Origin: Trichobilharzia szidati
Lineage: Eukaryota > Platyhelminthes > Trematoda > Strigeidida > Schistosomatidae
NCBI GenBank assembly: GCA_944472155.2
Contig: OX235272.1
Location: 104,352,020-104,416,019, forward strand
Length of the DNA: 64,000 nucleotides
Direction: 5' to 3'
The notes under the pieces are model-generated. The model did not search any database. It was given only the letters and a program-made list of their open reading frames with translations, and had not been told where the DNA came from. Numbering within the stretch: position 1 is the first letter of the stretch; every line of letters starts with the position of its first letter. This document shows, one piece after another, positions 665-64,000 of this stretch. The translations under genes and the position numbers were made by a program.

Positions 665-742
665 TGTATCCCTTGGGCACAAGATATTCTGAATAGAAGC
701 TTCTACAATGTTTTAAAAACTGACTCTGCTCTAGTTTGTGAA
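665..742 (+). CDS. Exon with Cys42 and Cys66 (type-2 paralogue)
   Basis: 78-nt exon, 26 codons, phase 0 at both ends. The acceptor has a strong pyrimidine tract and the donor is GTATGT. It differs from the copy at 41308-41385 by one synonymous base (TCT/TCC serine). Confidence 0.75.
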
Positions 743-2146
743 GTATGTTTTGTTTTTGTTTGTAAAAATTAGTTAAGTTGTTTTTTTTAACCTTCTTGGG
801 GGGAAAACGGACCGGTGGGTAGAATGTTGTGTACATACAGAATAGGTGCGTTAGTCCACTTGAAAAACTTTCAATGGAATTTGACTGAATTTTATGCTTG
901 AACTAACACAACTATGCACTTATTACAAGCAATATCATTAGATACACTGTCCTACTCAATCAGATTTAGCAAAAAAATACTTATTGTGAATTTACGGCTC
1001 ACAGGTAGAATGCTAGCCAGCTACGTAGGTGGTTCGGAATTCGATCCCTAATCGATGGACTCATCCTTTACCTCGTTAAGCTAGTAATAAGACTGATGAA
1101 GAAGGAAGGTTGTAGGTGCATGAGGCTAACAACCTTATCCCGCAAAAACAAATACCATTTTTACCGAAAATTTAAAGCTCCAGCTTTAAACCCTATGTTT
1201 CACTGCGAAAGTAAAGGAATAAAAAGAAAGAGTTATATACATATATATATGCAGAAACATCACCATAAATGGGAGAAATCTGAAAGAAGCAACCTCCCTT
1301 ACCTGGAAAGCATCGTTTTAACTACAGGCGGACGGAACAGATGAGGATATCAAAGTGAGGATCTGGAAAGGAAGGCAAGCTTTTATTACTCTCAACTCTG
1401 TGCGGAGATCGACAGCCCTACTCAGTATGAAAAATAAGATCCGCATTTTCAACTCCATTGTGAAGTCAGTGATGCTATACGAATCAGAGACTTAACGCCA
1501 CGCCGTGTCACGAAGGGCACTTCGAAAAAACTAAAAGCCTGTATCAACAGCTGTCTTTGCTCAATAATTCGCTCAAGATCAGGTGGCTGGCTAGAAAAGA
1601 TCAGCAATAAGGGTCTCAGGCAATGAGAAAACCAACTCAGCAGGAGTCAATTGTGCAACGAATATCCAAGAAGAAATGGAGATGGATTTCCGATACTCTG
1701 AGAAAACAAACCATCAAGTAAGTGACATCACACGCCAAGTCATCGCACGAGTGGAACCCGAATGGGAAGTGGCGAGTTGGTCATCATTGCGAGGGTGACA
1801 TGGAGGAGGTCATGTGAAGAGGAGATGAAAGCATATGGGTAGACGTGGAGCCAGATGATGAAAACGTTGGCAGAGAACCGAACGCAATGAAGACGTGCGG
1901 CCGAAGCCCTATGTTCCTCTAGGAATTAAAGGAAATAATAATAACAGTAATAATAATAATAATGATCGCAACATCTTAAGTGGTTTGTAGGGTTTTAAAA
2001 TCTTCGGTGTATAATCGAAGCCTTTGTCCTATATAGGGAGAACCTTCAATTTTCTCTCTCCCTGTTTATGCATAAATGTATATTTATGCACGAATTTTCA
2101 CTAATATTTCCTATTTTAATTTTTCTAGTACGCTTTTCTTTGCTGA
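665..2146 (+). CDS. Saposin-like type-2 gene, last two exons only (5' part off-window)
   Basis: Two exons are visible: 665-742 and 2129-2146. The first is 78 nt, enters and leaves in phase 0, follows a long pyrimidine-rich acceptor ending TTTTCATAG and precedes a GTATGT donor. It starts and nearly ends with Cys (C-I-P-W ... L-V-C-E), matching Cys42 and Cys66 of a saposin B fold. The second follows ATTTTTCTAG and encodes Y-A-F-L-C then TGA, giving the C-x5-C ending of saposins. Both exons are copied in gene 2 at 41308-41385 and 42770-42787, with one synonymous change in total. The earlier exons (signal peptide and Cys1/4/32) must lie upstream of the window. An RTE fragment and a SINE lie in the intron. 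Saposin-like proteins bind or disrupt lipid membranes and are usually secreted or lysosomal; the role here is inferred. Confidence 0.75.
990..1258 (+). mobile_element. SINE type I (tRNA-derived, RTE-tailed)
   Basis: Decayed A box, B-box-like GGAATTCGATCCC, then the family middle (GCATGAGGCTAACAACC) and the tail CCCTATGTTTCACTG. Shared with 41635-41880, so older than the duplication. Confidence 0.7.
1262..1966 (+). mobile_element. RTE-type LINE, 3' fragment
   Basis: Frameshifted RT C-terminus and 3' UTR of the same family as 16720-19880, ending GAAGCCCTATGTTCC then an (AAT)n tail at 1943-1966. Copy B equivalent 41925-42606. Confidence 0.75.
2129..2146 (+). CDS. Terminal exon with Cys72 and stop (type-2 paralogue)
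   Basis: Five codons (Y-A-F-L-C) then TGA, after an acceptor CTATTTTAATTTTTCTAG. Joined to the 78-nt exon it gives C-x5-C, the normal saposin C-terminus. It is identical in the copy at 42770-42787. It is too short to be called without the upstream exons. Confidence 0.7.
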   Translation, partial: YAFLC

Positions 2147-2179
2147 AGAAGGTCGCTTTTCAAGAAGTCAAGAAGTATT

Positions 2180-3620
2180 TCATATGTAGGTAAGTCAAAT
2201 GTGATAGATGTGACATTCTTATCTGTGATCATTTTCAATCTTTAATCAAGCATTGTGTATCCGCCTTGACAAATTCCACTAAGAAGCACCTCAAGCTAAC
2301 GTATGTCTTTATCAATATTTTAGGGGTCTTCATAAAGATTCTAGAGATAGCCTAGATTGATGTAGGTTGGGCTTCTTATAAATTGGCTGTATTTATTCAG
2401 TACCCAATATATTTCATGACGGTTTTCGTTACAGTGATTGAATGTAATTTCATATAGTTGTGTTTCCTGAGCTAGATAGTTTACTTGCGAAGCTTTCATT
2501 GTCCTAATCGCTAGTCAACATCTTCAGAGCATCCTTTAATTTGAAGTGACCATCTAAATTTCTGTACGAGTTTATTAGTCATCTCTTCTTGTGACCTTGA
2601 ACGTGGTTGATCCCTCTTGTCCATCTTCACAACATCTAGTCTACTTGTATTGATACTGATTTTTTCCCTGAACTGAAGTTTCACCCTGTGCACATGAGAT
2701 TTTCCTCTTATGGATTGGTAAATTTTCTCTGGTATTCTTGGTGTTTCTTCTGTCTAGTATTTGAAGTTTGTCCCAGTCGAATTGATGCTCATGGTTGTCT
2801 GTATGCAGCGATATTAGGGACTAGATGTCATATCTTTTGATAGCCAGTTTGTGCTCATGGATGCGAATCCGAAAAGGACGCCCACTTTCGCCAATGTAGT
2901 ATTTTTCGCAGTGGTTGCAATTTATTTTGTAGATGATTTTGGTTTTGTCTCCTTTCGCTGTTGAGTGTTTTGGCTGACACACGGCAGGCCGAGTGAAGTG
3001 ATTTTGTTGCCTTATGTGAGATATAAATTCCTTAATGTTTTTAATAGTCTTGCTGGGATTTCTGAGATGTCCTCCATGTGTGGTAAGATGATATTCTTCG
3101 TCCATTCCTAAGGGCCTTTTGATTTTATTGGTTGACTTGGAGGTAGATGTCTTTTGATGAAGTTTCGTGGGTATCCATTCTTTTGGAAGACGTCCAGGAG
3201 ATACTTTTCTTCAGTTTTCCTCAAGGTGGGAGTGCTGCAGTGAGTTTGTATGCAAATCTTTTGTGTTGTTGGGTTGTTGCTGTTGTAATTGAGTATTTAG
3301 TCTGTATGAGTTGATTTTCTATCAGCTTGAATTTCTAATTTTTCTGTGGTTGCTCACTTGACTAAGACGTTTAAAAGTGGGATTTTGTTCTCTGCTTCCT
3401 ATTCTCTTGTGAATTTGTTGTCGTTGAAGATATTGTTTATTAGGTTGTGAATTCTGTCTAACTCGTTTCGTTTGATTGTTACGAATGTGTCGAACAAAGT
3501 AACGTATCCAAACATTGTGTGATCTTTGGTGGGATTGTGTTTTCGAGGCCTTTGCATCACTGTTTCTGCACAATAAAACTTGAAAGTATTGCAATTACCT
3601 ATTTCACACAAAAGGGTTTG
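2180..3620 (-). mobile_element. PLE group A remnant (RT end plus GIY-YIG)
   Basis: On the minus strand the RT C motif is damaged (Y-V then F-D-T-F-V-T-I-K near 3490). A GIY-YIG endonuclease piece follows at 2821-3105, with N-C-N-H-C-E-K-Y-Y-I-G-E-S-G-R. The order RT then GIY-YIG is diagnostic of Penelope-like elements. Frames are broken. Copy B equivalent 42810-44340. Confidence 0.75.
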
Positions 3621-3763
3621 TCAAAGAAGAGTGTGATAAATTACTAGAAAACGTATCTCGTGAAGAAATAACAGATTAGAGAAGCAAACTTGTAAGCATT
3701 GGCAGAATTTAACTATTTTAACACAGTTATAAATTAAATAGAGCCATCAGGCAAAAAATGGAG

Positions 3764-4002
3764 CTTCGGTGGCACAGCGGTAGAATACACACCAACCACG
3801 CAGGTGGTCTGGGGTTCGTTTCCCGATCCCCAAGGCACTTATTTACCTTGCTAAGCCAGTATTGAGACTGGTAAAGGAGGAAGGTTGGGCATGAGGCTAG
3901 CAACCCCATCCCACAAAAATAAACACCACTGCTACTGAAACTTCAAGACTGTAGCTTCAAGCCGTATGTTCCACTGGGAAGGTGAAGGAATATAAAATAA
4001 AA
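3764..4002 (+). mobile_element. SINE type I, unique to copy A
   Basis: tRNA-like head (CGGTGGCACAGCGGTAGAAT and GGGTTCG) and the RTE-like tail GCCGTATGTTCCACTGGG. Imperfect flanking repeats at 3747-3763 and 4003-4018. Copy B has the empty site near 44450. Confidence 0.8.
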
Positions 4003-4277
4003 TCTGGCAACATCGAAGATTTTTTAATTGGGGATGTATGCTTAGTTCACTCGTGAAATTAGATCCTTTTGGCGCAACTTGATAAAAAGAAACAAGACGT
4101 TTAAGGTGCTTTATGCACTACTATGATATATTGGCTGCATTTGTATGAATTATTATTGATAAATATTTTCTTTGAAAAGCACAAACATCTTGAGTTGTCG
4201 GTATTCAGACACTGAATGGAAAACTTAACTAACTGTGACGCAGCCATTTAACAATAATAATATTATGATAATAATAG

Positions 4278-4622
4278 TGTGACGACAGAAGACAAGGGCT
4301 AGGCTACAAATCGTTTATTCAGAAAATCATGAGATATTTATAGATTTTTATGCACATTATTATTCGTTATTGTCAGAAGAGAAACAACGTCTTCTGATTG
4401 GTTGTTTTCTTGCTGAAGGTTATTCTCTCATCTCTTTGTGGCCGTTTCTTAGACAGTCCGGTCTGCGAAACGTATCTGCCCACGTTAGATCTGCTGTGAT
4501 TGGATGATGAGTCCCTCAAGGCTAGGCTTTGTTGTTGTTTTCTCTCCTAACCCCGATTCGGGACGTAAACATTGACGTAGATTGTTGTTTACAATTTTGC
4601 CTCGCAGACAGATCTCACCACA
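4278..4622 (+). mobile_element. Solo LTR, about 345 bp
   Basis: Begins TGTGACGACAG and ends CTCACCACA (TG...CA), flanked by the 4-bp direct repeat ATAG (4274-4277, 4623-4626). No internal coding region. A 4-bp target duplication suits Ty3/gypsy. The strand is arbitrary. Related to 44723-45068 and 25651-25954. Confidence 0.75.
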
Positions 4623-4626
4623 ATAG

Positions 4627-5640
4627 TAATAATGGCTTTATTCTGAAAAAAATGCGTCTGACATAACACAGGATATTCAGTGAGTTCCAATTCAAGATGT
4701 GTGTGGCATCTTCAAATGGGAGAATAACTGACAATACATCATCTGAAGCAATATTGTTCCAACCGAAGTATGCTTGCTTCAGTGCTAGCTACTCCACAAT
4801 GTTATTCCTCGATTTCCTTCGAAAATATTCCCAGTTGTAGGTAGAAAGTTGTTTGAAATGGTGCACAAGTGTTGGTTGTGACTCTTTGTGGTAATCAGAA
4901 GATTAGGACGATGTGAAATGAAGTAAAACCGATGCATTCTGATGGATAGATAACTTAGCCCGATGATTTAAGCAGGCCGCCAGGAGAGGTGTCATATGTG
5001 CAATCAGATATTCGCTTTTGTTGTTTATCTCATGCGTCTGACAGAAACTGACCCTCTTATCCTTATCACATTGTCCTTCCATGACTAAGAACCATAAAAT
5101 GTCCATCAGTCAGTCAGTCACTCACCACCTCAGTATTTTTATTCCCCTCACTTGGTATCCATCAGATAACGTAAAAATATGACAAGTATAAATGAAAACT
5201 TTACACAGAATTCTACATCTGAAAGAAGCAGACACAGACAGTAGGAATAGTGGTTGTTATAGCCCACTGAATACAGAATGCAGCAAGTATTCAGCAATTA
5301 TTGCTGAAACCTACGCAATTTCTCAATTTCAGTCATCAACTTCGAGCAAAGTGACTGAAACTTCACGGTTATCTGAATATATATGTATGCATATATGTAT
5401 ATTACTGAATGTAGAATGAAATGTGCATCAACCTGCTTATATTAAATTTTTGTTAACCGAAATTACAAAACTTCATACTACTCATTGGTTTGAAGAAACC
5501 AGAGGACACAGGTCCATTAGAGTACTCGCATGTATCATTTACAGGTAAACCGTAAAGTTTATCTCTCTAATTTAGCTGTAGCAGTAAGCACTACGTGTAA
5601 ATTATTATAATAGTATGATTACCCCCTTGGGTTTCAAGTG
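4627..5640. other. No gene recognised
   Basis: AT-rich non-coding sequence, partly copied at 45073-45840. ORFs here are not conserved between the copies. Confidence 0.5.
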
Positions 5641-6760
5641 TAACATAGGGCTTCAACAACACATCTCCACTTCGTTATATTGCATGTTGTCCTCTTCAGC
5701 TGGTTGGGCCCACAGTTGTCCATAATCTCTCATCTCCTCCTCCAACTCACACGATCTCCTCCATGTCACCGTAGGACGACCCACTCGTCGTCTCCCATTA
5801 GGATTCCACTAGTAGGGCTGACGCGCGATGTCATTCGACTACCACCTCAACATACACCCGATCCATCTTCAGTTTTTCCCACATATCTGTTGAGTCATCG
5901 GCTCTCGCCTGTTTGTTTGTTCTCAGATAGAGTTTCTTGTGTCTGATTCTTTCTGGCTCGCCGGTCGGCCATTTGATCTTCATTATGGAGTCAGGAAACA
6001 CAGATGTTGATAAAAGTCTACAAACGGCTGTTGAAAATGCTTTCCGTGATGCGTATAGAAGGACCGACTTGACATTGATGGTTTCAGGTTGATGAGGGTG
6101 TAACTTGCCTTTTTGATTCTGACTTTGACATGTTCATCCCCCCTGTCAACTGTGGTTGCAACGATGATGGCTGCCTAGACAAGTGAAGGAAGTAACCTAT
6201 GTCAAATCTCTTCCTTCGATGGTGGTTGGTCCTAGTTGCTGTTGTTGCTTGGTTATCTTCATCACCTCCGTCTTCTGTTTGTCTACGTGGAGTCCTGTCT
6301 TCTCTGCCTGCAATTTCTGATAGTTTGTTGATTTTCGCCTGCTGACCTACAAATCCTCGAGTTTTTGAGACACAGAAGCATAAACCATCCAGGCGTGAAA
6401 TGTAGTTCCTCTAGAGCCTTCTAATTGGTCAGTTCAGATTATTCGTGTATTCTCACTACCCACAATGTGCCTCATAATCTAGTTGAACACAGTTAAGAAT
6501 ATCATCGGTGATAATAGTCAGGCAACCAGCCTTATTTTACTTCCATCTTCACTTCAAAGGCTTCTTCACTGAGTTTTCCACTGTGGATGACCTAAAGCGT
6601 GGCACTGTCATATAGCCAGGTGTTGAATGAGGTTGATAAGGATTTTGGCACTGCACACCATAGTATTGAAGTAGTTTCCGAATCACTTCTCGGTCAGTGC
6701 TGTCTGTCGAAGGCATTTTCGAAGTCAATGAAGTTAAGACTCAGGTCTAACTGCTATTCT
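5640..6760 (-). mobile_element. RTE-type LINE, decayed 3' fragment
   Basis: Reads on minus as the RT end and 3' UTR of the RTE family; frames are heavily broken. Copy B equivalent 45855-47030. Confidence 0.65.
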
Positions 6761-6769
6761 ACGTATAAA

Positions 6770-7795
6770 TACGCATTACATTCAAAAGAAGAATGCGTGA
6801 TTACAAACCAAAAGCCAAGACGTTTAGCTGAAGACATACAGAAACTTTTAACTTCTCAGCTTAAATATTTTCACAACACACCTGTCATCTATCCAAACAA
6901 AACACAATTTGCAAATATAGTCTTTGGTACAAAAAAATACAACTTCTTGTCCGAAATAACTGGTCGAAATTACATTAGTATGGAACATGAATTTTAAAGT
7001 TCAGGAAACTTTTATGGTGAAATGTAGTTTTACAAGAAGAATATGTTGAGAAAGAAGTTTCTTAAGAAATTAACTTCTGTGGCACGGAGAGTTTGTCTCT
7101 CCGCTATATATTACAACTGCGGGGGTATTTAAAATTTCCATGGATTGTCTTATATAAATTTGTATTGTGCACCTTTCCTTGTTTATTTTCGTGAATGTAT
7201 TTGCTTCTTATCTTCCTTTCAGTTGGGATGCACCTTATTCAATTCACTTTCAGCGTTTAACACAATCATGCAATTATTGTAGATCTTCTGCAAAATTCTA
7301 ATAAACAATTAAAGACTAATTGGATTTATGGGAGTTTTACAGAAATGCAGTGTCGTAATGATAAACTTTGTTATGCCTTTTTTAAAAGTGTAATCCGTAC
7401 ATGTTTTCGCATAAATGTTTTCAGTAAAATATCTCAAACCCCAATCAGATTTAAGTGTAAATTAAATACTGACTACTACTCATAAACTAATACGTTGAAA
7501 GGAGTTATTTGCGTGATAGTGTTTTTTATTGAAATCCACAATACTCCTTTCTTCCTGTCTTAGACTCGTCAACTATAAAAGTACTTGCATTTTAGTGAAA
7601 AATAACGTTCCTGCTAAGGCTTGACTGTAGCAGTCATCATCGTAAATGCAAAAGTGTGTGATCCATTAGGCTAACTGAGCAAATGCCTATTAACTCTTGT
7701 GATACAAAAAACTGCTGAACAAGTTTCAATCTGTGTTGTGCCAACAGATTAAGCTAAAACTATATATTAAGAAGACGGTAGCAGCAAGGAAAAAA
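6770..7795. other. No gene recognised
   Basis: Shared with 47040-48045. A 132-codon ORF across 6599-6997 has stops in copy B and overlaps RTE debris, so it is not called. Confidence 0.5.
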
Positions 7796-9225
7796 ACTTC
7801 TTTTCGACGAAGTCATTAACTAGACAGCTGCACAGTCATGTATTTATAGTGAATGTGTGAGGAAATTCCAGAATTATTTCAGGCCAAAGGTAAAATTAAT
7901 AAAATTACAATGCTCCTAGTTTGGGAATCTTCATCAGTACGCACCCACTGGGGTTCAAACCAAACTAGGACGAAACAGCTATCCATTACTCCCAGCTGGT
8001 TTTCCAATGGTTCTCTAACCAATGTCAGCTCATAATTAAATCCTGTAACCAACCAACCAAATCCCTACAAACCAACACTTGAAAATTACAATGTGCAATA
8101 ATCAGGAAGATCGGGTGGAAAAGACAAAATAAGATTATAATTACTGGAAAAGTCGTGAGTTTATATAATTATGGGTTAAGGACGCAGTGTTAACAAAATA
8201 GGTACGAGGTTCGGACATATAAAAAAATACAAACAGTAATCAAATCTAATAATGCAGATAGCGATATAAAAAAGGTAAAAGGTGATGGATTCCCATCCAG
8301 ATTCATAGACAAGAATCTAAAACCAAAGAAAACACCTGAAAAGGTGCAAGTCACCCCCAAATATATGCTGTTACCTTACCCAAAATTTAAAAGTGATCAC
8401 GAAGCAGAACTTCTCCGTAGACAGATTTCGAAGTCTCTCAGTTAAATATATTTCACCGCCAGCTTACGAGTAAGATTTTCTGACAAGAAAATATTCAAGC
8501 AGCATGTGATGAAAGACAAGCTATCGCATATACCAGTTCACTTCCTTGTGTGGAGCTGATTACAATGGCGGTACCATGCGTCCGCTTGTAAAACGATTTC
8601 GGGAACACTATCCAGCATAGTTAGCAAAAAGAGAACACGAGTGTATACAGTTCGATAACAGAACATCTGCTGGTGGATTCTGAACATTCAGCCCCATTTG
8701 AAAAGTCCTTCAAAGCCATATACAAGATCCGATCAAATCACTTTTCTCAAAGGGAGTGAAATCAAGACATCTAGGAATAGCTGAGGCATTGGCGATCCAA
8801 AATCTTTATCCTATTCTATGTGTCCAAAAGGAACACGTCCAACCGTACTCCCTACTTTGGCCATCATGAAAAGTCTGTTTCACCAATAATGATTATCCTA
8901 TTACCTTTCTTGTCCAACCTTCCCGTTTATTTGTTATAATTACGTTTTTAAATTGCCACCTGCATTATCAGATTTCGTTACTGTTTGTATTTTTATGTGT
9001 CCGAACCTCCTACTACATTCTTAACCCGTAATTATACAAACTGACGACTTTTCCAGTAATTATAATCTTATTTTGTCTTTTCTACCTATCTTCCTGATCA
9101 TAACATATTGTAATTTCATTAATTTGACCTCTGACCTGAAATAATTCCGTGCTTTTCTGACATATTTAATATAAATACAGGACTGTACAGCTGTCTAGTT
9201 GATGACTTCGTCGAAAAGAAAACTA
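7796..9225. mobile_element. PLE group C copy bounded by inverted 3'-end repeats
   Basis: A PLE C-terminal/GIY-YIG remnant (+, about 8275-8880) lies between arms 7796-8270 and about 8945-9225 that are reverse complements (both start or end with TTTTCGACGAAGTCAT-like sequence). The left arm is interrupted by a SINE at 7913-8081. Copy B equivalent 48045-49290, without the SINE. Confidence 0.7.
7913..8081. mobile_element. SINE type III with inverted 5' part, unique to copy A
   Basis: Flanked by the perfect 12-bp repeat AAAATTACAATG (7901-7912, 8082-8093). The first 48 nt are the element's middle in reverse orientation; the rest is forward. Copy B keeps the empty site near 48150. Confidence 0.8.
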
Positions 9226-9880
9226 TATACTCAAGACGAGTTTTTATTTTCTTAGGCTGAGGTCATTAATAGGAGTAATAGTGGTACATAAGCACTCATC
9301 AGAGCCGCACTTAAGTAAGAGGGAAACTATTTGATGACCATACCTCATGGAAGGCACAAAAAGTCATATTCCTAAAAAGCGGTTCATCCGATACCATAAC
9401 AAGGTGAAGACGAATAGAGTCGCTCTGTAATCGAATGTTAATTTATATTACAGGGACAGCATGTGAAGTATACCAATAATGTGTAGAAAAAATCAAATGT
9501 TGAAGACCGTTATAGGTTGCGCAAATAGATAATTCATGCCTTCCAGAGAAATTTTTGTCGTATAAAAGTCCACATCAGCTGATGAGAAATTGGAGTATAA
9601 CTATCATTTAGGAATTTCTAGAATGATACTAGATTAACCACTGACGTTACCTTCAGCTTACTTTCAGTCTAAGTGTTCAAAAACATAAAAAATGCATCAT
9701 AAGTGTGAAGAGAGTGCACAACCATGACCGCATGAAACCATCAGAAGAATAAGCAGACAATTTCTACTGGAGGGTTATTTAAGTTTGTTATTTCACAAAA
9801 AAACGATCCTCACTCATCCATCTTGGATGGTAATTTCTTTCAGTAAGACTTACGAAATAAGCGAATAAACAATTCTTCTC
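9226..9880. other. No gene recognised
   Basis: Non-coding, conserved with 49290-49960; no frame survives in both copies. Confidence 0.5.
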
Positions 9881-11700
9881 TAATTACGATCAAAAGACAT
9901 AAGAAATTTTCAAAAAACAACATTCTCTTGGATAATTTCCTTTTCCAGCTCTACAATTATATATATGTATACGCATTTATATTCACAGAATATTCTAGAA
10001 CAATCGCCATTAACAATATTGGTAATTTTTGTCTAAATAACATCGATTTGTTAAGATCACAAAAGAATCCCCACGGTTCAAGAAAGATGCATAAGTTATA
10101 TCACAAGCACAAAACTGTAACAGTAAGTAGAGTATTATATAAAATTAAGAAAATCTCTACAACAAATTAAGGGCCATTAAAACCTTGATGGTTGGTTAAC
10201 GGGGTTAGGAAAGCTTTTGAACCAATTTCTTCTTTTGGATACATAGATTAGACTTGTTAATGTAAATTCCAACAGTCAGCCTCAGCAATATGTAAAGGCG
10301 GAACTCTTGAGGTGAAATTAAGCTAAGTTGGTTGGTATGCGGTAGATGATGTTGAAAGCCGTGTTTAAATCAATTTTCTGTTCTGTATCTACGAGATGAG
10401 ACAATAATAGAACTATGAATGGATTTTGTTTTTCGCTTACTTAACCAACCAGTATGCAGGATGGTGTTCGAAGATCCGACGATGAACACGCCTAATTGCA
10501 CGGCCCATGTAACTGGCCCCGCAGGAACAGCCAAATCGATATCTTTCGAACGTGAAATAGGGGTGCTTTGAAAACACACCGTGATTCAGCAGCACTGAAT
10601 GCTTTTTTTGTCTCATTCTTTAGGCGTCGTTTCAGTAGCTCATTTATGTTATCTTGAGGAACCGAGGTTGTAAGAACAAGACCTTTTTCGGAAGTGTTGG
10701 TACCCTGGCCTGTCTTGACTTTTAGTTCATATTCTTATTGATGAATTTTTCTCGGCAGCCGTTCTCACTCAGCAACTCTTTGATAATATTAAGCACCTCA
10801 TTAAGACATCCATCAGAGCATATTGGTCTTGCTCTGTGACGGACCAAGTACTTTATTGGATTGCGTTTGTATTTCAAATGTACGAAGCTGACGGCATCGT
10901 CATACTTTCCAGTTGATGAAGGTTTTCCATGTACACTTCATTCTACCGTACCATCCTCTTTTCTAGTATTAACAACGTCTGAGAATGAAATACTGGAGTC
11001 CCTTTATTTCTTTCCCGATGGTACAATTCATTGCAGGATGAACATCGTTAAATTTTTCCGGGCTGTTCTTTTCTTCATCCTCATTTTTCATAATCAAAAA
11101 TGTATCATCTATGTAATGACAGTAAAATCCTAGTTCATCAGTAGCATCTTTCAAAGGCCCATTCTGTACTTTTGCAAGAAAATGTCGGCTACAATGGGTC
11201 CTAGTAGTGACCCTATTGCCACACTGTTAAATTATCTATATAGTTCCTTTTTAAATAAAAAGTGGACACTCATTGTGCATTTCAAAAGAAGCCCTACCAT
11301 TACAGATATAGGAATGGTGACACCGATGCTTTGTCTACTAAGTTCTTCCAATACAAAGTCGTCTACTGTTTCCATAAGTTGTATATTGGTGAATAAAGAA
11401 GATACATTAAAAGATATGATGAATCGACTATCAACATTTAAATCTTTTATCCTCCCAACTAATCCAAAGGTGTCTTTCATGCTCTGTTTCACCAATTCGG
11501 TACGTAGAAGTTGTAGGAGTTTGATTAACCATTTGACTATAAGATGTTATGGTGAGTTTAAAATACCTAGCACTGGCCAAAGAGGCAAACAAAATTTGTG
11601 CACATTTGGTGAATAAAATGCAATATTGGCGTGAACGTCCTAGTGCCTTTCAGTGATGTATACTGACATTGTGACATAAAGTCTTGTTGTTTCAGGATGT
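9880..11700 (-). mobile_element. PLE group B remnant (RT, GIY-YIG, 3' UTR)
   Basis: Minus-strand RT motif A F-N-V-S-S-L-F-T-N (11232-11495) and motif C Y-I-D-D-T-F-L-I (10969-11154), then a frameshifted GIY-YIG part near 10450-10560 and an AT-rich 3' end. Copy B equivalent 49960-51770, where motif C reads Y-M-D-D-T-F. Confidence 0.8.
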
Positions 11701-12265: not shown

Positions 12266-12365
12266 AATTCATGAAATAGGGTGATAATTTCGCAATGTCT
12301 TCTTCGATGAGTTACTGCCTCACCTTCAGTCTGTTTGTCAAACAAAAATACAACTGGTTTTGGTT

Positions 12366-53615: not shown

Positions 53616-53619
53616 TGAT

Positions 53620-54175: not shown

Positions 54176-54179
54176 CACG

Positions 54180-55535
54180 TAGTTCAGCAAAGAGTCACTT
54201 TTCAGTGAATTAATTTTCTTAGCTGTACAATCGTAAATATATAAATATATGTGTTATTTTGTATACATGTGTACATTAAGTTTGTCAAACAAAAATGCAA
54301 TACGTTATGGTTATTTTAACTAAACAGGTGAGAATTAGTAAGTTTCGGTTGGAGTTACGTAATACAAAGACGGTCAAGAAAATTAGGTGTTAATGAAACT
54401 AGTGTAGTAACAAAAGTGATGAGTTGTCACAATCAGTTATTAAAAAGGAGTTGTATAATAATATGAATAGTTTGACGGTTGAGTTGTGCTCAGGATACAC
54501 GTAGGAACAAAGCAGAGTATATGAAATTACGTTAGAGTTCCAAATGAATACAAGAATTATAAGCAATTAGCGAAACAAGCAAACAAACAAAATTAAGTCA
54601 TCGAAAACCAACAAATTTGTTATTATGGTAATAGAATTGGTTGAGTAATTCTCTTTTGTATGCGCAGCTCCGGTTTTTCTATGTGAATAGCCAGAGCTTC
54701 AGCGATACAAAGAAGACGAAACTCTATTGCCTTTGGGAGGTTATTCTTGGCTCTGTAAATTATTTTGAAGCAGGAGGCGTTTGTTGAGATGGAATGAACA
54801 GTGTTAACCAGGTGTTCAATTATCGCTCTCCTTATAGCACCACTATTGCCTTTTCTTAACCATTCTGGGCAGTGTTATTAAATCCTCTTGGACAGAATGC
54901 GCGTCAAACGACCAATGTACCTGGCTGGCTCCACAGCAGCAGGTGAACTGATATATACACATAGAAGTGGTCAGATGCGGGATCTTGTCCTCAAGGCTTC
55001 TGCAGATCAGCGGGCGACTGGAGAACACTATTCTTAGCGTTGCTGCAGAGAATGTTCTTCTCAGAGGTAATGTTATTCTTCTCTTAAGAATATCACTTGC
55101 TAAATCTTCCTTGAAATCCAAGTTCATATAGAGTTTCCTTTTCGGCGAAAATGAAGTTTCATTCCTCCAAACTCTTCGTTTGATATTTCTGTTTATGAAT
55201 CTTGGTTGGTATCCATTTTGGATGAAGATTTCTCTCAAAATATCTAACTCCGTTTCTAGAACATCGGGACTACAGATGCGTCGGATGTAGGTGGCAAGGG
55301 ATTGAATTAAATTTCGATTTTGTTGAATGGCTACTCAGGTATAGAAGCTCGTTACTTGACCATTCCAAGCAGCCTTTTATGGATCGATCTTCTTAAGGTC
55401 CCATCAGTTCTTCTTGTTAGTTCCATACATATATATATATATATATACATATATATATAATTGTGATTGTACAGCAAAGAAAATTAATTCGCCGAAAATA
55501 GGCTCTTTGATGAACTACGTATTTTGTTTTCATTA
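54180..55535 (-). mobile_element. PLE group D (copy B, no SINE)
   Basis: Minus frame 55238-54843 holds a C-terminal linker and the start of GIY-YIG (Y-Q-F-T-C-C-C-G-A), then a frameshift. Confidence 0.75.
55425..55460. repeat. (TA)n microsatellite
   Basis: TA/CATA repeats between two PLE pieces; shorter in copy A near 14018-14034. Confidence 0.9.
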
Positions 55536-55599
55536 ATGTCTGGATGGGGATTATTCATGAATTATCACAAGCTGTCATGGAACGTTCAACTGACAAATT

Positions 55600-55889
55600 T
55601 TTACAGCTGGGTACCCATTGGTTAAAAACGAAGCCTAATACCGTCACTTGCCACTCGCATTCGGCTCATACGTAGTTCTCATACTGTGGAGGAAGAGTTA
55701 AATCTTCTAACAAAAATCCTAATGGAAAATGGATTTCCGCCATGTACAGTGAAAACCTATGAAATTTGACCTATCAACCCTAACCAAGAAAATGCACTAC
55801 ATGAGCTTGCAATTCAAAGGTGACTTAGCTTCCCATATCATTAGAAGAAGGATATCACAATTCCTGAAGAGGACATTCCCTGATGCATC
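55600..55889 (+). mobile_element. PLE C-terminal fragment, truncated (copy B of 14150)
   Basis: Same as 14150 onward until GATGCATCGTTGAAAA, where an RTE fragment begins. Confidence 0.7.
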
Positions 55890-56838
55890 GTTGAAAATTA
55901 TTATTATTATTATTGTATCCTTCAATTCCTACAGGAACATAGGGCTTCAGCCGTGCGTCTCCATTGCGTTCGGTTCTGTGCTAGAGTCTTCACCTGGCTC
56001 CAGGTCTGCACACACGTTTTCATCTCCTCTTCACATGACCTCCTCCAAGTCACCCTTGCATTGACGACCAACTCGCCGCTTCCCTTCCGGGTTCCACTCG
56101 AGCAATGGCTTGTCTAGTGATGTCACTTGATGCTTTGTTTTCTCAGAGTATGGCCACCAATCCATCTCCATTTCTTCCTGCCTGTTTGTTTCACAATTGG
56201 TTCCTGGTTGGTTTGCTCCCAGAGATCTCTATTGCTGATCTTTTCTGGTCATCTGATCTTGAGTAGTACTGAGCGAAGACGGCTGTTAATGAAGGTCTGT
56301 AGTTTGCTTGAGGTGCTTTTTATGACGCGCAGTGCAAGTCTCTGATCCGTATAGTAGGTGGCACTGACTTCACATTGGAGTTGAAAATTCGGATCTTATT
56401 TTTCATGCTGAGTGCTGTTCACCTCCACACAGACTTAAGAATAGTGAAAGCTTGTCTTGCCTTCCCGATCCTTGCTTTGATATTCTCGTCAGTTCCGCCT
56501 GTAGTTGAAACGGTGCTTCCCAGGTAGGTAAAATAGGTTGTTTCTTTCAGGTTCCTTCCATTTATGCTGATTTTTGTCTGTTGTTGTTGCTGTTGGTGGT
56601 GTTGTCCAGGAATTTTCACCACCTCTGTCTTCTCAATGTTCACCTGAAGTCCTATCTTTGGTGCTTCTTCTGCCAACTTGTTGCTTTTCGCTTGCATATC
56701 TTCCAGTTTGTGTGGAATCAGACATATATCATCGGCGAAGTCCAGACCCTCCAAGTTTTTTGTGTGAGTCCATTTTATGCCTGTTTCCTCACTGTCCGCT
56801 GTTTGTCGCATTATCCAATCTACTGCAATCAGTTAGTT
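55890..56838 (-). mobile_element. RTE-type 3' fragment, unique to copy B
   Basis: Minus frame 56811-56419 includes F-A-D-D-I-C-L-I, the intact RT catalytic motif, and L-G-S-T-V-S. Starts at the (ATT)n tail. Together with a deletion it replaces copy A 14490-14970. Confidence 0.8.
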
Positions 56839-56850
56839 ATTTCATATTAG

Positions 56851-57040
56851 CATCGGCGGCACAGCTGTTCGGACTCTAACCAACCATGCACATGTCTGGG
56901 GTTCGATCGCCTACTGACGCACATCTGATATCGATGGTCAGCCTGTAAAATTTTGGCTACCGATATCATATATGCTGAAAATTCCATACTTGTACGAAAA
57001 ATACCCTGTGGAACCAAGCTATAATCAAAATAATTTTTTT
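56851..57040 (+). mobile_element. SINE type II (copy B of 14990)
   Basis: CGGCGGCACAGCTG, GGGGTTCGATCGCC and the tail GAAAATTCCATACTTGTACG. Confidence 0.8.
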
Positions 57041-57370
57041 TAAATAATTTATCAAAATAAATCTTGACAAAACAGTAAATATCTTAAGATATTTGAGATA
57101 AGCAAAACCTTTGATATTACAAAATTTATTAGAAAAACAAAAAAAAGCACAAAAAAATTGTACCATTTTAACTTTATATTCCTTCTTAATCGCAAGATAA
57201 TAATAATGATAATAATAATAATAACGTCTGATACTTTGTACCTATAATATCCTATGAGAACTTCACTGAAATAATAAATACACACAAGGGAATACAACAC
57301 GAATAAATTATGTTGACTTTGATAATGACTGTTAGACATTAACAGATTGCTCAACTACGATTTGATACTA

Positions 57371-57413
57371 ATGCTGTTTGTGTTATTAACTGTTTTGCTT
57401 CTTGCAACAGTAG
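57371..57413 (+). CDS. Signal-peptide exon of gene 1B
   Basis: M-L-F-V-L-L-T-V-L-L-L-A-T-V, then GTAAGT, phase 1. Copy of 15512-15554. Confidence 0.65.
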
Positions 57414-60400
57414 GTAAGTTTAATTTTACCGAGTAGAATTTTCATGTATGACGACTGTTGTACGACCTGAGATAATCTTAAATTGACAGATCACCACCAA
57501 TATGGGGGATGATGAACGTGAAATAAAAATCTGGCTAGCGGTAGTATTCTTAACAGTGATATCTGGATAAATAGCTCGGATGTATAACAGCAGAGTGACA
57601 ACAGTCAAATGCCAACCGGGACATCATATCACTGCAATCATTACATGTAATGTCTAGGTGGTATAAGAATAGAACTTGCGCACTGTAGCAGAGTGTAACT
57701 CCATTGTGTATTTATTTTGATAAAGTCTCACAGTGTGTTATACAGTAATATTTATTGATGACCATGTTTCCATCACAATTAATTACTGCTCATAGTCATA
57801 TCAATTTCAAGGGCAAACATAAGGTGTAGCAATGGGATGGATCACCATTATCCCCTATCGTAGCAGATATCGGTATGGATGGATAGCTGGGAAAATATTG
57901 CTCTTAACATTAACATTTGGTCCTACTCCACAGATGGATGACACTTTCATTCACAGTGTTAAAAACAGAACATATATCTCTAGCTTCTTCGCACATATAA
58001 ACTCAATAGTAAAGGGAATAAAATGCACATTTGAATCGGAAAATGGACAAGGAGAATTAGCAATGATGACAGATTGTAGAATAAAACGAACAAAAGAAGG
58101 TAGACTGCACACTACAGTTTATAAAAAGCCGACGCATTCAACTAATAGATATTTAGACTTTAATTCATCTCATCCGTTATCTGTTTGTGAAGGCAGGCTT
58201 AGTTAAGTGTCTGTCTAACAAACTGAGCAATAGCACCTAGTAGTACAGCAGGAAACCTAAATGATGAAATGAAAAAGATCGAAGAAGCGTTGGTGTTAAA
58301 TAACTAACTATCCTATAAAATTCATTAGGAAGATCAGAAAAGGTTGAAAGCAAAACAAAAATGATGGTGAAACTAATAATGATAACATGAATAAGAAAGA
58401 ACATATGACATTTACAGTTCTATAAGGGGAGGACATCAGCAACCCTCCCTACGTAAGATTCTTAAAAAATTTAGGATTTAGGGTGGCATTCAAACCTACA
58501 AACTCACTCAGGCAGGGACTAGCTACGTAGTTTAAAAGACCCTGTCGGTTGACTCAATTATTATATTTTTTTATCATTGTTTCCTTTGGTTTCTAGAGGA
58601 ACATAGGGCTTCAACAACATGTTTCCATTGCCTTCGGTTTTCTAACAACGTTTTCTTCACCTGACTACACGTCCGTCCACATGCTTTCATCTTCTCTTTA
58701 CATGGCCTCCTCATCCACATCACCCTCACACTGATGAACAACTTACTGCTTCCCATTTGGGTTCCACTCGAGCAATGGCCTGGTGTATGATGTCACTCAC
58801 TTGATGGTTTGTTTTCTCAGAGTATGGCCAATCCGCCTTCATTTCCCCTTGCATATTTGCTGCACAGTCAGTTCCGGCTAGGTTGGTTCGGTCACTGCCA
58901 GAGATCCCTGTTGCTGATCTTTTCTGGCCAACTGATCCTGAGTATTGAGCGAAGACAACTGTTGATGAAGGTCTGTAGTTTGTTTGAGATGCTCTTTATG
59001 ACGCGCTGGCCAAGTATCTGATCCGTATAGTAGCACTGACTGACTTCACATTGGAGTTGAAAATCCGGATTTTATTTTTGATGCTGAATGCTGTTGACCT
59101 CCAAACTGACTTGAGAGTAGTGAAAGCTTGTCTTGCTTTTCCGATTCTTGCTTTGATATCCTCATCAGTTCCGCGTGTAGTTGACACGATGCTTCCCAGG
59201 TAGGTAAAAGAGGTTGTTTCTTTCAGGTTCCTTCCATTTATGCTGATTGTTGTATGCTGTTGTTGTTGCTGTTGGTGTTCTCGAGGAATCTTCATCACCT
59301 CTGTTTTCTCTATGTTCACCTGAAGTCCTATCTTCGATGCTTGTTCTGTCAACTTGTTGCTTTTCGCTTGCATATCTTCCAGTTTGTGGGAAATTAGACA
59401 TATATCATAGGTGAAGTCCAAATCCTTCAAGTTTTTCGTTAGGGTCCATTTTATGCCCATTTCCGCATTGCCCGCTGTCTGTCGCATTATCCAACCTACT
59501 GCAATCAGGAAACTCATTGGCGATAGTAGGCAGCCAACTTGTTTTACTCCTGTCCCCACTTCGAAGGATTCCGTGAGTTTCCCCTTGTGGATGATTACTT
59601 GGTATGCAGCACTGTCGTACAACTGTTGGATGAGGTGTATAATTGTTGGCAGCACCCCATAGTAGCGAAGTAGTTTCCAAATCACCTCTTGATCGACGCT
59701 GCACTATCGAAGGCCTTTTCAAAGTCAATGGAGTTGAGATAGAGAGGTGACTGCCATTCCAGGCTTTGTTCAATGATGATCCATAGTGTTGCGATCTGAT
59801 CAATGCATGGATTGTTTCTCCTGAATCCAGCCCGTTCTGCTCGAGGGTTTTTATTCAGGGCGAGTTTGATTCTCTCCAGGATGATGCGGCTTAGTCGTTT
59901 ACTCGGGATGGACAGGAGCATAATGCTGCGCCAGTTCTTGCATTTCTCTGGCAGTTTGAATAAGTAGCTTTTCTTCCAACCCTCAAGTACCTTGCCCTCT
60001 TTCCGCACCTCCTCCAGTAGTGTAGCATCAAGTCCGCTGATGTCTCTGGGTACATTTTCAATGCATCTGCTGTGATTCCATCTGGTCCTGCTGTTTCTCT
60101 AGTTGTTAGCATCTTGAGTGCCTTCAAGATTTCTGTTCTCGTTGGAGGGTTGATGTCCACTGGTAGTTCTGCTTCCGCTGTTGGTATTATTGGGTGCTTT
60201 GTATGTGGTGGTCGATTTAGAAGTTTCCTAAAAGGTTCAGCCCAGTGTTTCCTTTGCTCCACCTCCTTGGTGATTGACTTTCCATTGTCATCCTTCACTG
60301 GCTTAATTTGTGTTGAACTTATCCCCGATAGGAACCTAATTGTTTGGTAGAGTGTTGCGAGGTCTCCTTCGCCAGCAGCTTGCTCTGCTTCACTTGCCAT

Positions 60401-63400
60401 AGCTTCATAATATTTTCTTTTGTCTTCCTCCGCACTCTTCGTTGCTGTCTTGTTTAGTGTATTGTAGCTTGTATACAAATCCTGTTTTTGTTGCTCGTCG
60501 ATGCACCGGACTCTTTTGTTTCACCATCCTTCCCCCTTCTGTTAGTCTCCAAGTGTCCATAGTGAGCCACTGTTTGTCCTGTCTCTTCTTTCTGCCTAGA
60601 ATTTCCATGTAAGTTTGACTCTACACAGCTTTCAGGCTGTTCCAGTGTTTTTCAACGCTGGTCTCTTCTGTGTGCTTATTTGTGTCTCCTCCTTTTTCAT
60701 TTTGATTGCAAGGAAAATGTCCTTTGTGGCCTGATCCTTCAGTTTTTGAGCACTGAACATGGCTTGTGGTCTATCTGCAGCTACTTTTTATTTGAAAGCT
60801 TTTAACTTGATTTCGAGTGTTCTTTGTACGAAATAGTGGTCTGAGCCAACGTCCACTCCTCTTCTTACTTTTGTGTCCAGTAAGCTGCCTCTCTACGTCC
60901 TTGAGCAGTATTGAGATGAAATCAGTTTGGTTTTTGGTTCGTCCGTCTGGTGACACCCATGTAGCCTTGTGGATATCCTTGTGCTTGTATACGCTGTCAG
61001 CAATCACTAGTTCATCGAAGGCACAGAAGTCTGCGAAGATTTCTTCACTTACATTCATCTCTCCAAATGCTTCTCCACTCATAATGAGTTCTCTACCTGT
61101 GTTGTCTGATCCCAGTTTGGCGGTCATGTCTCCCATTTGCATTTTAATGTCACGAATGGAGTATGGTCCGTTGTTGCCTGTTACTGCCTGCAGAACTGTT
61201 ATTTCTTTTCGAGGTCAGTGTTGTTCGTGGGTGCATAACATTGTATAATTGTCACTTTCCTTCCTTTCTGAGTTGAATCTGGTGGTCATTATCCCGGGCG
61301 AGATCGCCTCCCATTGTATGAGGGCCTTCGTTACCGTTGGTGACATCATGATAGCCACACCCTCGGTGTGCTCATGGTTTTCTTTTGAGTTACCGGAGTA
61401 GATCACTGACTCTTCCGTTGAAAATTTAGTGAGTCCACTCACATTCCATCTGCTTTCACATATTCCGTATCTTTTCATCTCGTTTGCAATCTGAGCAGCT
61501 TTGCCAGTCTCATACATGGTGCGCACGTTCCATGTCCCAACAAAGACTTTTTCTTTTGACGCAAGAAGACTTATCGTACCGACGTTTCTGTAGCAGCTTT
61601 GTTTACAGGGTGGAGACGCTAGCAACACGCCTGAGAAAGGGCTTGTTACATGAATATATAGGTAACAGAAGAGCGACTTTTTGGATTGCTCCCATTAGAA
61701 TCAGGAAGATAAGGAATAAAGCAATCTGAATCACATCAGCAAAAGGAAAACAAATTTACAACAGGAAAGGCTGTGACAACAAAAAATAAACCGCATGAAT
61801 GCATTAACTATGGAATTAAAACAGTAACTGCCCATTAAGGTTCCCTTTTAACAATCCTATTCGTATTTAATCAAACTTATTTGCCATCTATTTCAGGGTC
61901 AACTTCGTCTTTCAACCATGTAAAGGTAAACATGATGTTTTTATAATGTTTTTTTATGAGTGGATTTTCTACACAGAAATAATAAAGGTCTGAATGAGTA
62001 TCTTTTAAGCGCTTTCCTATAATAGCAAAAGTGACATTTCCACAACTTTGTTCCTCTCCAGTACAAATGAAATCTTGTAAGAACCCTCAGCCACAGGATC
62101 AGAGTTATATGCTCAAAAGAGGCAACTGAAGATAAACTAAGGATTGTATATAATACCTTGATCGAAAATAGCTATCCAGACAAATTTATCAAAAAAATAC
62201 AAATGACTAAGAAAGTTGAAAAGGACTATTCACTCAATAACCATAAACCAGAAGCCTTTATACCTACAACTGCAATTCAACGCCTGCAATATACCAAGCG
62301 AAAGAATTGCAAAGAAGTTAAGAAAATCAGTTCAAAGATATTTTTAAGCTGGTAAACGACAATTCTTATATTCTACACCTCGACCGGTGGTGATTCCCCA
62401 ATTGAAGGATGAATTACTTAGATCAGCCACCTCTAATTGTATCTGCCAATTCAAATGCGTTGTTGGTAGAGCGAGCTATATTGGACGTGGCTCTAGGAAC
62501 TTGATTTCTAGTGCTCGTTTGGGAACACCTAGCAGTGTGGTGTGACTAAATAAAGGTGTGGTTAGAAGCACCAGTATCTGCCTATTAGAACACCTGGTCA
62601 AAACCGGCCACTAAGTTAGCAATGACAAATCAATCTCTATCATCTACTGGATACCAGACAAATTGCCAGAAACAACCAGGTACCACATACTCCAAACAGC
62701 AGAGGCTATCGCGATTCGCATAAAACAACCAGTGATTTGTGTGCAAAAGGAACAGGTTCAGCTAGCCATTTTACTGCTCTGGCTTTCCATGCAGCCTGTA
62801 AATTCATGAATCTGTATTATTATTTCTCTGAATTTCTCTGATATTCAGTATATTGTTATGTTGATGCCACTGAACTGTAATGCATTGCTATTACTATGAT
62901 TACTGATTAGATGTTATTTAAACAAAAATAATGTTGTTAATAACACTAATTTATCCACTACTATGCATATATAACTGTAGAACCTGATGAAAAAGGGGTC
63001 ATCGAAAAGAATACTCTTTGCTCACCAACTATTCTTTTGATATTTTTCACATTATTTAAATGAATATGTAAGTTAGGTGTTTAATTTCTCAATATGAAAT
63101 GTCTTATCATTAACAGCTGCCTTCGATCCATTCTGAAGGTAGAACAGCTGGTTAGAAATGCAAAGCAACAAAGAACTCTAACAGCAAGTCAACCAATAAA
63201 CAACCATTCAGCAAATATAAAGAAGGGAATAGAGATGGATTGGACATACGCCGAGTTGGGAATGCCTCCAAGGTATCTGTTTTCAGTGGGGGAAATGAAA
63301 TCTTATAGGCATTCGTGAAGGCAGCTCGAAATGACTGCTTAGATCCGACTGAAATAGGGATGCGCTTCTAACGCCTTATGCTCCGATAGAAACCCTAGGG

Positions 63401-64000
63401 AATAAGAATAATCCTCATGATGTGCTGTTAATCTAACGTCTACCAAGTGCTTCACTGGCTCAGAGTTAGGGTGCTCGTTTAGCATGCATATGGTACGGAG
63501 TTTGAATCCCGACTGACGTACATCTTCACCTCCCTTGGCGAGTTGCAAGCCCGACAAAAACAGGGAAAGTTGGACGTGAGGCTAGCAAATCACCCCCTCA
63601 CGGCTACCGAAGCTTGAGAGCTCAACCTTTAGGCCTTGTGTTCCACTCGTAATAGAAAAATAAAAATCACATCAGCCAAACGAAACGACTTTAAACAATT
63701 TATTATGATTCACTACGATTCTTTAATCCCCGCTAGTCTTTCTAACTCTTGGTAAATGTTTTTCTCCCGCCCTAGGTTACTGACAATAATCACTTCAGTG
63801 ATGATGGTAACTCTAAGAGTACCTTGTCAGACAGTAAGATTTCAGTCCACTTGAACTTTCTAATGTCAATTTGTTTATAGTGTGTCAGACATGTCAAACA
63901 GCAGTCAACTATATTCTGTCAGCTTTGGTAGAATATTTTCAAGTTCATAAAATTGATAATTACATTGAAACATTTTGCAAAATAGCTGGAAGTTCTAATA
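57371..64000 (+). CDS. Saposin-like type-1 gene 1B (5' part; runs off the window)
   Basis: Visible exons: 57371-57413 (signal peptide), 63776-63833 (linker), 63881 to the window edge (120 of the expected 125 nt). It is the tandem-duplicate of gene 1A: the exon order, phases and splice sites are kept, and the long first intron holds the same PLE and RTE insertions. The linker has changed quickly (E to D, Y to H, N to S, N to D, W to M against gene 1A) while the SapB core shows one replacement in 39 codons. The exons with Cys42, Cys66 and Cys72 should lie just past the window. Same inferred role as gene 1A. Confidence 0.8.
57690..58555 (+). mobile_element. PLE group E remnant (copy B)
   Basis: R-Y-V before D-D-T-F has been lost by a short deletion near 57930 (M-D-D-T-F remains). 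Confidence 0.75.
58560..61640 (-). mobile_element. RTE-type LINE, about 3.1 kb (copy B)
   Basis: EN piece 61628-61215 (V-G-T-W-N-V-R-T-M), second EN piece 61142-60771, RT pieces 60478-59891, 60008-59682 and 59685-58996. The catalytic motif reads F-T-Y-D. Same insertion as 16720-19880, with a shorter frameshift load in the RT. Confidence 0.85.
62040..63050 (+). mobile_element. PLE C-terminal fragment group F (copy B)
   Basis: N-S-Y-P-D-K-F-I near 62164 and a GIY-YIG-like A-S-Y-I-G-R-G-S-R near 62470-62500; broken. Confidence 0.65.
63450..63660 (+). mobile_element. SINE-like repeat type IV (copy B)
   Basis: Copy of 21935-22130 with the tail CTTGTGTTCCACTCG. Confidence 0.6.
63776..63833 (+). 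CDS. N-terminal linker exon of gene 1B
   Basis: 58 nt between CTCCCGCCCTAG and GTAAGA, beginning V-T-D-N-N-H. The split codon is ATG (Met), where gene 1A has TGG (Trp). Confidence 0.75.
63881..64000 (+). CDS. SapB exon with Cys1, Cys4 and Cys32 (gene 1B, cut by window edge)
   Basis: C-Q-T-C opening and Cys32 retained; expected to end at 64005 by comparison with gene 1A. Confidence 0.85.

What the first reader, a model, noticed from the sequence alone, without database searches (positions are those of the whole stretch)
665..64000. Hidden tandem cluster of saposin-like genes of two alternating types
Four genes or gene parts share one exon plan (signal exon, linker exon, 125-nt exon, 78-nt exon, tiny last exon) and the same six-cysteine spacing (1, 4, 32, 42, 66, 72). 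The order is type 2, type 1, type 2, type 1. No single ORF exposes them because the exons are 18-125 nt and the introns are kilobases of retroelement. The signal was found by phase-consistent splice sites, not by ORF length.
Basis: partly seen in the sequence, partly recalled or inferred. Interest (0 to 1): 0.9.

Follow-up and report, generated by a model that had tools for sequence, protein, structure and literature searches.

The report
Hidden saposin-like gene cluster in fluke
The window holds four small secreted saposin-like genes, cut into tiny exons that ordinary gene finding can miss, and they belong to a larger cluster of such genes in what looks like a blood fluke; the protein family is known, but this fast-changing cluster shows how members can stay hidden.

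Summary
Two genes lie complete in the window and two are cut by its ends. The six-cysteine spacing is exact. The five strict exon-pattern hits in the window all belong to these genes; shuffles gave 0 and 0.06 per strand. The alternation is one ~38.4-kb tandem duplication of a type2-type1 block; across it exons differ at 3.7%, the rest at 12.8%. Flanks and genome searches show ten related genes or gene parts over ~0.48 Mb of one chromosome. A four-type profile matches saposin A at 6e-6, and 26 of 26 matches are saposin-fold, but Pfam SapB is below cut-off (type 1) or absent (types 2-5). A GST exon suggests a schistosomatid fluke. One type-2 pair differs about as fast as neutral DNA yet stays intact. 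Best reading: secreted lipid-binding SAPLIPs, probably of the gut, diversifying after duplication. No expression data were available.

The parts
665..742 (+). Gene t2A, exon 5 (78 nt; Cys 42 and 66); exons 1-4 lie left of the window at -7316..-7277, -7223..-7195, -4459..-4423, -4367..-4243
2129..2146 (+). Gene t2A, exon 6 (18 nt, YAFLC-stop; Cys 72)
15512..15554 (+). Gene t1A, exon 1 (signal exon, 43 nt, phase 1 exit)
20492..20520 (+).
   Evidence: splice sites and reading frame conserved in both copies, one synonymous difference
22245..22302 (+). Gene t1A, exon 3 (linker, 58 nt)
22351..22475 (+). Gene t1A, exon 4 (125 nt; Cys 1, 4, 32)
27582..27659 (+). Gene t1A, exon 5 (78 nt; Cys 42, 66)
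28792..28812 (+). Gene t1A, exon 6 (21 nt, ALILCK-stop; Cys 72)
33371..33410 (+). Gene t2B, exon 1 (signal exon, 40 nt; weak donor A|GTAAAC, present also in t2A and t2C)
33464..33492 (+). Gene t2B, exon 2 (29 nt)
36331..36367 (+). Gene t2B, exon 3 (linker, 37 nt; weak acceptor)
36423..36547 (+). Gene t2B, exon 4 (125 nt; Cys 1, 4, 32)
41308..41385 (+). Gene t2B, exon 5 (78 nt; Cys 42, 66)
42770..42787 (+). Gene t2B, exon 6 (18 nt, YAFLC-stop; Cys 72)
57371..57413 (+). Gene t1B, exon 1 (signal exon, 43 nt)
61897..61925 (+). Gene t1B, exon 2 (29 nt)
63776..63833 (+). Gene t1B, exon 3 (linker, 58 nt)
63881..64000 (+). Gene t1B, exon 4, first 120 of 125 nt (ends at 64005; exons 5 and 6 at 68463-68540 and 69662-69682 outside the window)
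1..30218 (+). First copy of the ~38.4-kb tandem duplication (begins at -8137 outside the window)
32530..64000 (+). Second copy of the tandem duplication (ends at 71069 outside the window)

Best explanation
The window is the middle of a cluster of short, secreted, single-domain saposin-like proteins (SAPLIPs) of a schistosomatid-like fluke. Each complete gene has six very short exons: signal start, 29 nt, linker, 125 nt with cysteines 1, 4 and 32, 78 nt with 42 and 66, and a last exon with 72 and the stop. Splicing gives a 108-120 aa precursor. Removing the signal peptide and linker region leaves a domain of about 75 residues, which should be held by three disulfides (1-72, 4-66, 32-42, by analogy with saposins). 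Shown here from sequence: exon plan, profile similarity, constraint, duplication. Inferred: splicing itself, secretion, release into gut or oesophagus, and that the protein binds lipid and destabilises or strips membranes of ingested cells. The two-gene block t2-t1 was duplicated once in tandem, and type 2 also exists as inverted copies. The scaffold (frame, cysteines, splice sites) stayed fixed; in the t2A-t2C pair most other changes alter amino acids.
For: Exon pattern specificity. Six-exon models with matching phases: t1A, t1B, t2A, t2B and t5, and inverted copy t2C with the same six exon lengths as t2A. Four-type profile against PDB: saposin A 6.3e-6, SP-B 0.001, amoebapore A 0.002, 26 of 26 matches at E<=10 of the saposin fold. 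Reversed-sequence controls: no match, and two unrelated matches at E 1.3-1.4. Exon differences 25/681 against 4311/33805 elsewhere, no gaps in exons, 0 of 20000 random placements as low. t1 pair dS 0.153, dN 0.037. The C3 multi-domain saposin gene has a SapB exon starting right at cysteine 4 after an AG acceptor, the same border as the 78-nt exon. GST exon closest to 28-kDa GST chains (Schistosoma by recall), 1.6e-31. Literature, passages seen: schistosome SAPLP multigene family and gut/vomitus location (PMC9302751, PMC4350168, PMC4671649).
Against: No transcript or protein evidence. Pfam SapB models: type 1 below cut-off, type 2 none, types 3-5 none (types 3 and 4 were partial products). A single type-5 sequence found no PDB match at E<=10. 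Exon 4 folds alone as two helices, but only at pLDDT 67-68. Some donors are weak (t2 exon 1, score -0.2; t5 exon 1, score 1.5). The t2 linker acceptor has a poor pyrimidine tract and my own linker search missed it. Single exons are not exceptional: 2.8% of 78-nt windows of the duplication are as conserved as t2 exon 5, and type-1 exons 1 and 3 are no more conserved than their flanks. Signal peptides were judged by eye and hydropathy. Function and tissue are carried over from related flukes.
Confidence: 0.85

Rival explanations
1. The products are mainly membrane-permeabilising (amoebapore/NK-lysin-like) agents rather than lipid carriers; the acidic type 1 and the basic type 2 would work as partners or on different membranes.
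For: The profile also matches amoebapore A (0.0021). Type 2 (t2B) domain pI 8.8 and net charge +3.7 at pH 7, type 1 (t1A) pI 5.6. Lytic activity of fluke SAPLIPs is mentioned in passages seen of PMC11727788 and PMC4350168.
Against: Best matches are saposins, which bind lipid. The t1A and t2B domains each carry two possible N-glycosylation sites; t2A lacks one of them (I for T). No activity data.
Confidence: 0.35
2. Part of the cluster is decaying: some copies are unexpressed pseudogenes kept by recent duplication.
For: No last exon was found for t4, and t3 has only an odd 81-nt candidate exon 5. t2C differs from t2A at neutral-like rates (dS 0.109, dN 0.122; non-exon 14.5%).
Against: t1A, t1B, t2A, t2B, t2C and t5 have intact frames, splice sites and cysteines. 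A simple neutral model gives 6e-4 (frame and cysteines) or 3e-5 (splice sites too) for t2C staying intact. Tandem pairs are constrained.
Confidence: 0.12
3. Exons of neighbouring units are joined across genes into multi-domain, prosaposin-like transcripts.
For: All units in the window are on one strand, and exons have matching phases. A multi-domain saposin gene exists on C3.
Against: Each complete unit has its own start exon and its own stop exon.
Confidence: 0.04
4. The pattern is a chance reading of splice-like sites.
For: Exons are tiny and found by pattern; the type-5 sequence alone finds no PDB match.
Against: Shuffle controls, conservation without gaps, profile match and recovery of the same plan in t5 and t2C.
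Confidence: 0.01

Closest known systems
Schistosome saposin-like protein multigene family (SjSAPLP1-15, SmSLP-1, vomitus saposins; passages of PMC9302751, PMC4350168, PMC4309203)
   Same: SapB proteins of blood flukes, many paralogs, dN/dS of 0.39-0.82 reported for vomitus saposins of S. mansoni against S. haematobium
   Different: A genomic cluster, a ~38-kb block duplication or a fixed exon-length plan was not described in the passages seen
Fluke SAPLIPs of ~100 aa with one saposin B domain (26 genes in Calicophoron daubneyi; passages of PMC11727788)
   Same: Size, signal peptide, single domain, lineage expansion
   Different: Those were chosen by their saposin B domain annotation; the genes here fall below or outside the Pfam cut-off
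Prosaposin / saposins (PDB 7p4t saposin A; 2gtg proactivator polypeptide)
   Same: Cysteine pattern and best profile matches
   Different: One domain per gene instead of several; an extra exon border just after cysteine 66
Schistosome micro-exon genes (MEGs; definition recalled)
   Same: Secreted (inferred), very short exons
   Different: Only one internal exon is 36 nt or less, and its length (29) is not a multiple of three; cysteine-framed domain

Membership tests
Saposin-like proteins (SapB domain) | Six cysteines in the saposin order and spacing | tested here: met
   1,4,32,42,66,72 in t1 and t2; same in t5; all six kept in t2C. Not complete in t3 and t4 (last exons not found)
Saposin-like proteins (SapB domain) | Sequence-profile similarity to saposin-fold proteins | tested here: met
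   Profile of four types: 26 of 26 PDB matches at E<=10 are saposin-fold, best 6.3e-6. Against: Pfam SapB below cut-off for type 1 and absent for types 2-5; t5 alone none
Saposin-like proteins (SapB domain) | All-helical four/five-helix fold | tested here: inconclusive
   Exon 4 alone: two helices, pLDDT 67-68.
Saposin-like proteins (SapB domain) | Disulfides 1-6, 2-5, 3-4 and lipid interaction | not testable with these tools
   Needs protein
Saposin-like proteins (SapB domain) | Secretion signal (for extracellular SAPLIPs) | tested here: inconclusive
   Hydrophobic start exons in t1, t2, t3 and t5; none found for t4; no trained predictor used
Prosaposin | Several SapB domains in one precursor | tested here: not met
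   One domain between own start and stop exons
Micro-exon genes (definition recalled) | Most of the coding sequence in symmetric internal exons of 36 nt or less | tested here: not met
   Exons 43,29,58,125,78,21 and 40,29,37,125,78,18
Pore-forming SAPLIPs (amoebapore, NK-lysin) | Membrane permeabilisation | not testable with these tools
   Only charge and a weak profile match

The most novel reading that the evidence does not exclude
A cluster of at least ten secreted saposin-like genes in which the exon template, reading frame and six cysteines are held fixed, while in some copies the rest of the domain changes about as fast as neutral DNA after duplication. These genes escape SapB domain models, so blood-fluke genomes may hold a hidden, diversifying SAPLIP repertoire at the host interface.
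Probability: 0.4. Interest if true: 0.6.

Novelty: new member of a known kind. Interest (0 to 1): 0.45.

Why it matters
SAPLIPs are gut-secreted proteins and diagnostic antigens of flukes (passages of PMC9302751, PMC4309203). The copies here would be missed by annotation that relies on Pfam SapB cut-offs, so counts of the family may be too low. The tandem, inverted and diverged copies on one chromosome let selection on each exon be measured directly, and the exon template gives a simple way to look for hidden members elsewhere.

Tried and rejected
A phase-0 signal exon of 39 nt at 15512-15550 joined straight to the linker was dropped. The 43-nt donor is far stronger (7.1 against 0.6), and its phase 1 needs a further exon, for which two candidates conserved in both copies were found. 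I took 20492-20520, whose peptide is identical in both copies; the other, 21947-21975, has two amino-acid differences. Early signal-exon scans allowed phase 0 only and so missed t2; one search listed its start at 33371 without my seeing it. A candidate 29-nt exon before t4 (-35361) also occurs on the other strand at -70908, so I read it as a repeat. t3 exon 5 (81 nt) and t4 exons 1, 2 and 6 remain unsettled. NCBIfam gave only a phage-holin match at E 0.011, under its cut-off. Rfam and tRNA scans were empty. The sigma-70 promoter scan means nothing here. One search used a wrong window record; it was repeated correctly. Papers: no report of such a cluster was seen in the listings of searches, which show 15, 20, 6, 5 and 2 papers. 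The library is partial, the paper cited for the S. japonicum family (10.1093/infdis/jiw188) is not held, searches and readings 33 and 34 failed, and PMC5825161 has no mention of saposin.
Full report
OBSERVATION. A strict scan asked for AG, 2 nt, Cys-x2-Cys-x27-Cys, 125 nt, GT, and for AG, Cys-x23-Cys-x, 78 nt, GT, without stops. It found two 125-nt and three 78-nt exons on the plus strand of the window and none on the minus strand. 200 dinucleotide shuffles gave on average 0.0 and 0.06 per strand. A relaxed scan of 264 kb allowing exon-4 lengths of 110-152 nt (with GTA or GTG donors) returned eight exon-4 candidates, all of 125 nt, so the constant length is not only built in by the strict pattern; the first two cysteines were still fixed and the third was allowed a range. 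A looser scan with any GT also listed shorter ends (110, 113 nt) for three of the same exons. For exon 5 the relaxed scan returned, besides 78 nt, three candidates of 81, 81 and 99 nt, one of which may be t3's exon 5.

GENE MODELS. The missing link was a 29-nt second exon. In type 1 it lies at 20492-20520 (copy 61897-61925), with frame and splice sites conserved and a single synonymous difference; one search listed one other conserved candidate. In type 2 the same-length exon was the only second-exon candidate passing fixed criteria in each of the two regions scanned (t2A and t2B), 53 nt after a 40-nt signal exon. Complete models, in window coordinates: t1A 15512-15554, 20492-20520, 22245-22302, 22351-22475, 27582-27659, 28792-28812 (117 aa). 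t1B 57371-57413, 61897-61925, 63776-63833, 63881-64005, 68463-68540, 69662-69682. t2A -7316..-7277, -7223..-7195, -4459..-4423, -4367..-4243, 665-742, 2129-2146 (108 aa). t2B 33371-33410, 33464-33492, 36331-36367, 36423-36547, 41308-41385, 42770-42787. t5, outside the window, 86019-86064, 86109-86137, 88800-88860, 88908-89032, 92411-92488, 96170-96193 (120 aa). Each sum is divisible by three with one start and one stop. The partial t3 model departs from the plan: its second exon is 20 nt.

WHY THE TYPES ALTERNATE. Plus-strand self-comparison of 224 kb shows one tandem duplication, -8137..30218 against 32530..71069, offset about 40.7 kb, with no third copy in line (first seen). Aligned bases are 87.4% identical. 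Each copy holds one type-2 and one type-1 gene in that order. The 2.3-kb spacer between copies holds the 499-base gap.

THE CLUSTER. Flanking DNA adds t3 (-52187), t4 (-25336/-21500) and t5 (88908) on the plus strand and t2C on the minus strand (-85404/-88884). Whole-genome protein searches (1.11 Gb, 907 contigs; only best candidates are scored) place type 1 at t1A and t1B only (6 of 6 matches). Of 9 type-2 matches, 8 lie at four places on C2 (t2A, t2B, t2C, t2D) and one on C3 at E 1.1. Of 14 type-5 matches, 6 lie at two places on C2 and 8 elsewhere at E 0.07-6.6. t2D has intact exons 4 and 5; the second type-5 copy was not read. In all, ten genes or gene parts lie between C2:104.20 and 104.68 Mb. 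Types 3 and 4 were not searched genome-wide (unanswered for type 4; type 3 never asked).

WHAT THE PROTEINS ARE. Type 1 matches prosaposin at 0.003 and saposin A at 0.0038; type 2 matches proactivator polypeptide chains at 0.008 and a chain named saposin C at 0.014. A profile of types 1 and 2 gave 0.0025. A profile of types 1, 2, 4 and 5 matches saposin A at 6.3e-6; of 26 distinct sequences at E<=10, all 26 are saposin-fold molecules (for the plant aspartic proteases the fold is recalled). Reversed controls gave none, and two unrelated matches at E 1.3-1.4. Against: Pfam SapB is below cut-off for type 1 and absent for type 2 and for types 3, 4 and 5; type 5 alone finds nothing in the PDB. Types 1 and 2 are related to each other (BLASTP 4e-5 for one comparison, 21% identity). 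Exon 4 alone is modelled as two helices at modest confidence. The only place over the PF05184 cut-off in the genome, on C3, is a multi-domain saposin gene with an exon that starts right at cysteine 4 after an AG acceptor, the border that the 78-nt exon has here.

SELECTION. Across the tandem copies the twelve exons differ at 25 of 681 positions, with no gaps; other aligned positions differ at 4311 of 33805. None of 20000 random placements of the exon lengths reached so low a count. Caveats: exons 1 and 3 of type 1 are no more conserved than their flanks, the type-2 flanks are themselves well conserved, and 2.8% of single 78-nt windows are as conserved as t2 exon 5. The t1 pair has dS 0.153, dN 0.037; the t2A-t2B pair 0.044 and 0.004, on only three and one changes. 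In contrast t2A against t2C has dS 0.109 and dN 0.122 (7 and 29 changes), with non-exon divergence 14.5%. Yet all six exons, all ten splice dinucleotides, the frame and the six domain cysteines are kept. Under a simple neutral model the joint probability is about 6e-4 without and 3e-5 with the splice sites (substitution and gap rates, independence assumed). So the scaffold is kept while the rest is free, or driven, to change; this test cannot tell the two apart. Passages of PMC4350168 report dN/dS of 0.39-0.82 for saposins of S. mansoni vomitus against S. haematobium, which fits.

ORGANISM. A GST exon from the same genome matches the 28-kDa GST chains at 1.6e-31, then a sigma-class GST at 9.4e-19. 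That the first are Schistosoma and the second Fasciola is recalled. I conclude a schistosomatid-like fluke; this rests on one exon, and the species is not established.

FUNCTION. Inferred from family: secreted, disulfide-bonded lipid-binding proteins acting on membranes of ingested cells in gut or oesophagus. Passages seen: S. japonicum has at least 15 SAPLPs, and some schistosome saposins are proposed to lyse red cells (PMC9302751). Ten S. mansoni saposins are the most active group of gut-secreted genes in that study; one exception is biased to heads, with weak evidence for a saposin domain (PMC4671649). C. daubneyi has 26 SAPLIP genes against 0-12 in other flatworms (PMC11727788). Two saposin B transcripts are among the ten most raised in T. 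regenti schistosomules (PMC6362228).

VERDICT. A real, well-supported cluster of a known kind of gene. The new elements are its six-exon template, the block duplication that makes the types alternate, the extent of the cluster, and the contrast between a fixed scaffold and fast change in type 2.

Noticed in passing
about 31980-32470: Two protein-like frames in different reading frames next to the 499-N gap, in the spacer between the two duplicate copies; weak Utp13 (0.021) and Tudor_3 (0.027) matches under cut-off. Possibly a broken retrocopy of another gene.
   Followed up: partly
17940-18653 (-), 52545-53393 (-), 19516-20031 (-): Retroelement pieces: RVT_1 4.2e-5 (under cut-off) and 3.9e-9, endonuclease-like 0.044 (under cut-off); two lie in intron 1 of t1A, and repeated stretches recur through the 224 kb.
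   Followed up: partly
25937-26482 (+), 30372-30971 (-), 54843-55334 (-): Frames with a CSCG/CCCG...YIGR-like motif that looks like Penelope-type elements (recalled); the one scanned (25937-26482) had no Pfam match.
   Followed up: no
G000:C3:114414144-114433372 (L001-L003, L020-L025): A multi-domain saposin gene, the only place over the PF05184 cut-off in the genome (three matches); one of its domains has the same 1,4,32 cysteine spacing.
   Followed up: partly
window coordinates 84818-85655 (L014): Local tandem repetition with offsets of 120-340 nt near the type-5 gene.
   Followed up: no
G000:C6, C7 and C8, seven places: Weak matches of the type-5 protein (E 1.36-6.59) with open frames of 103-133 aa, perhaps a repeat family.
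   Followed up: no
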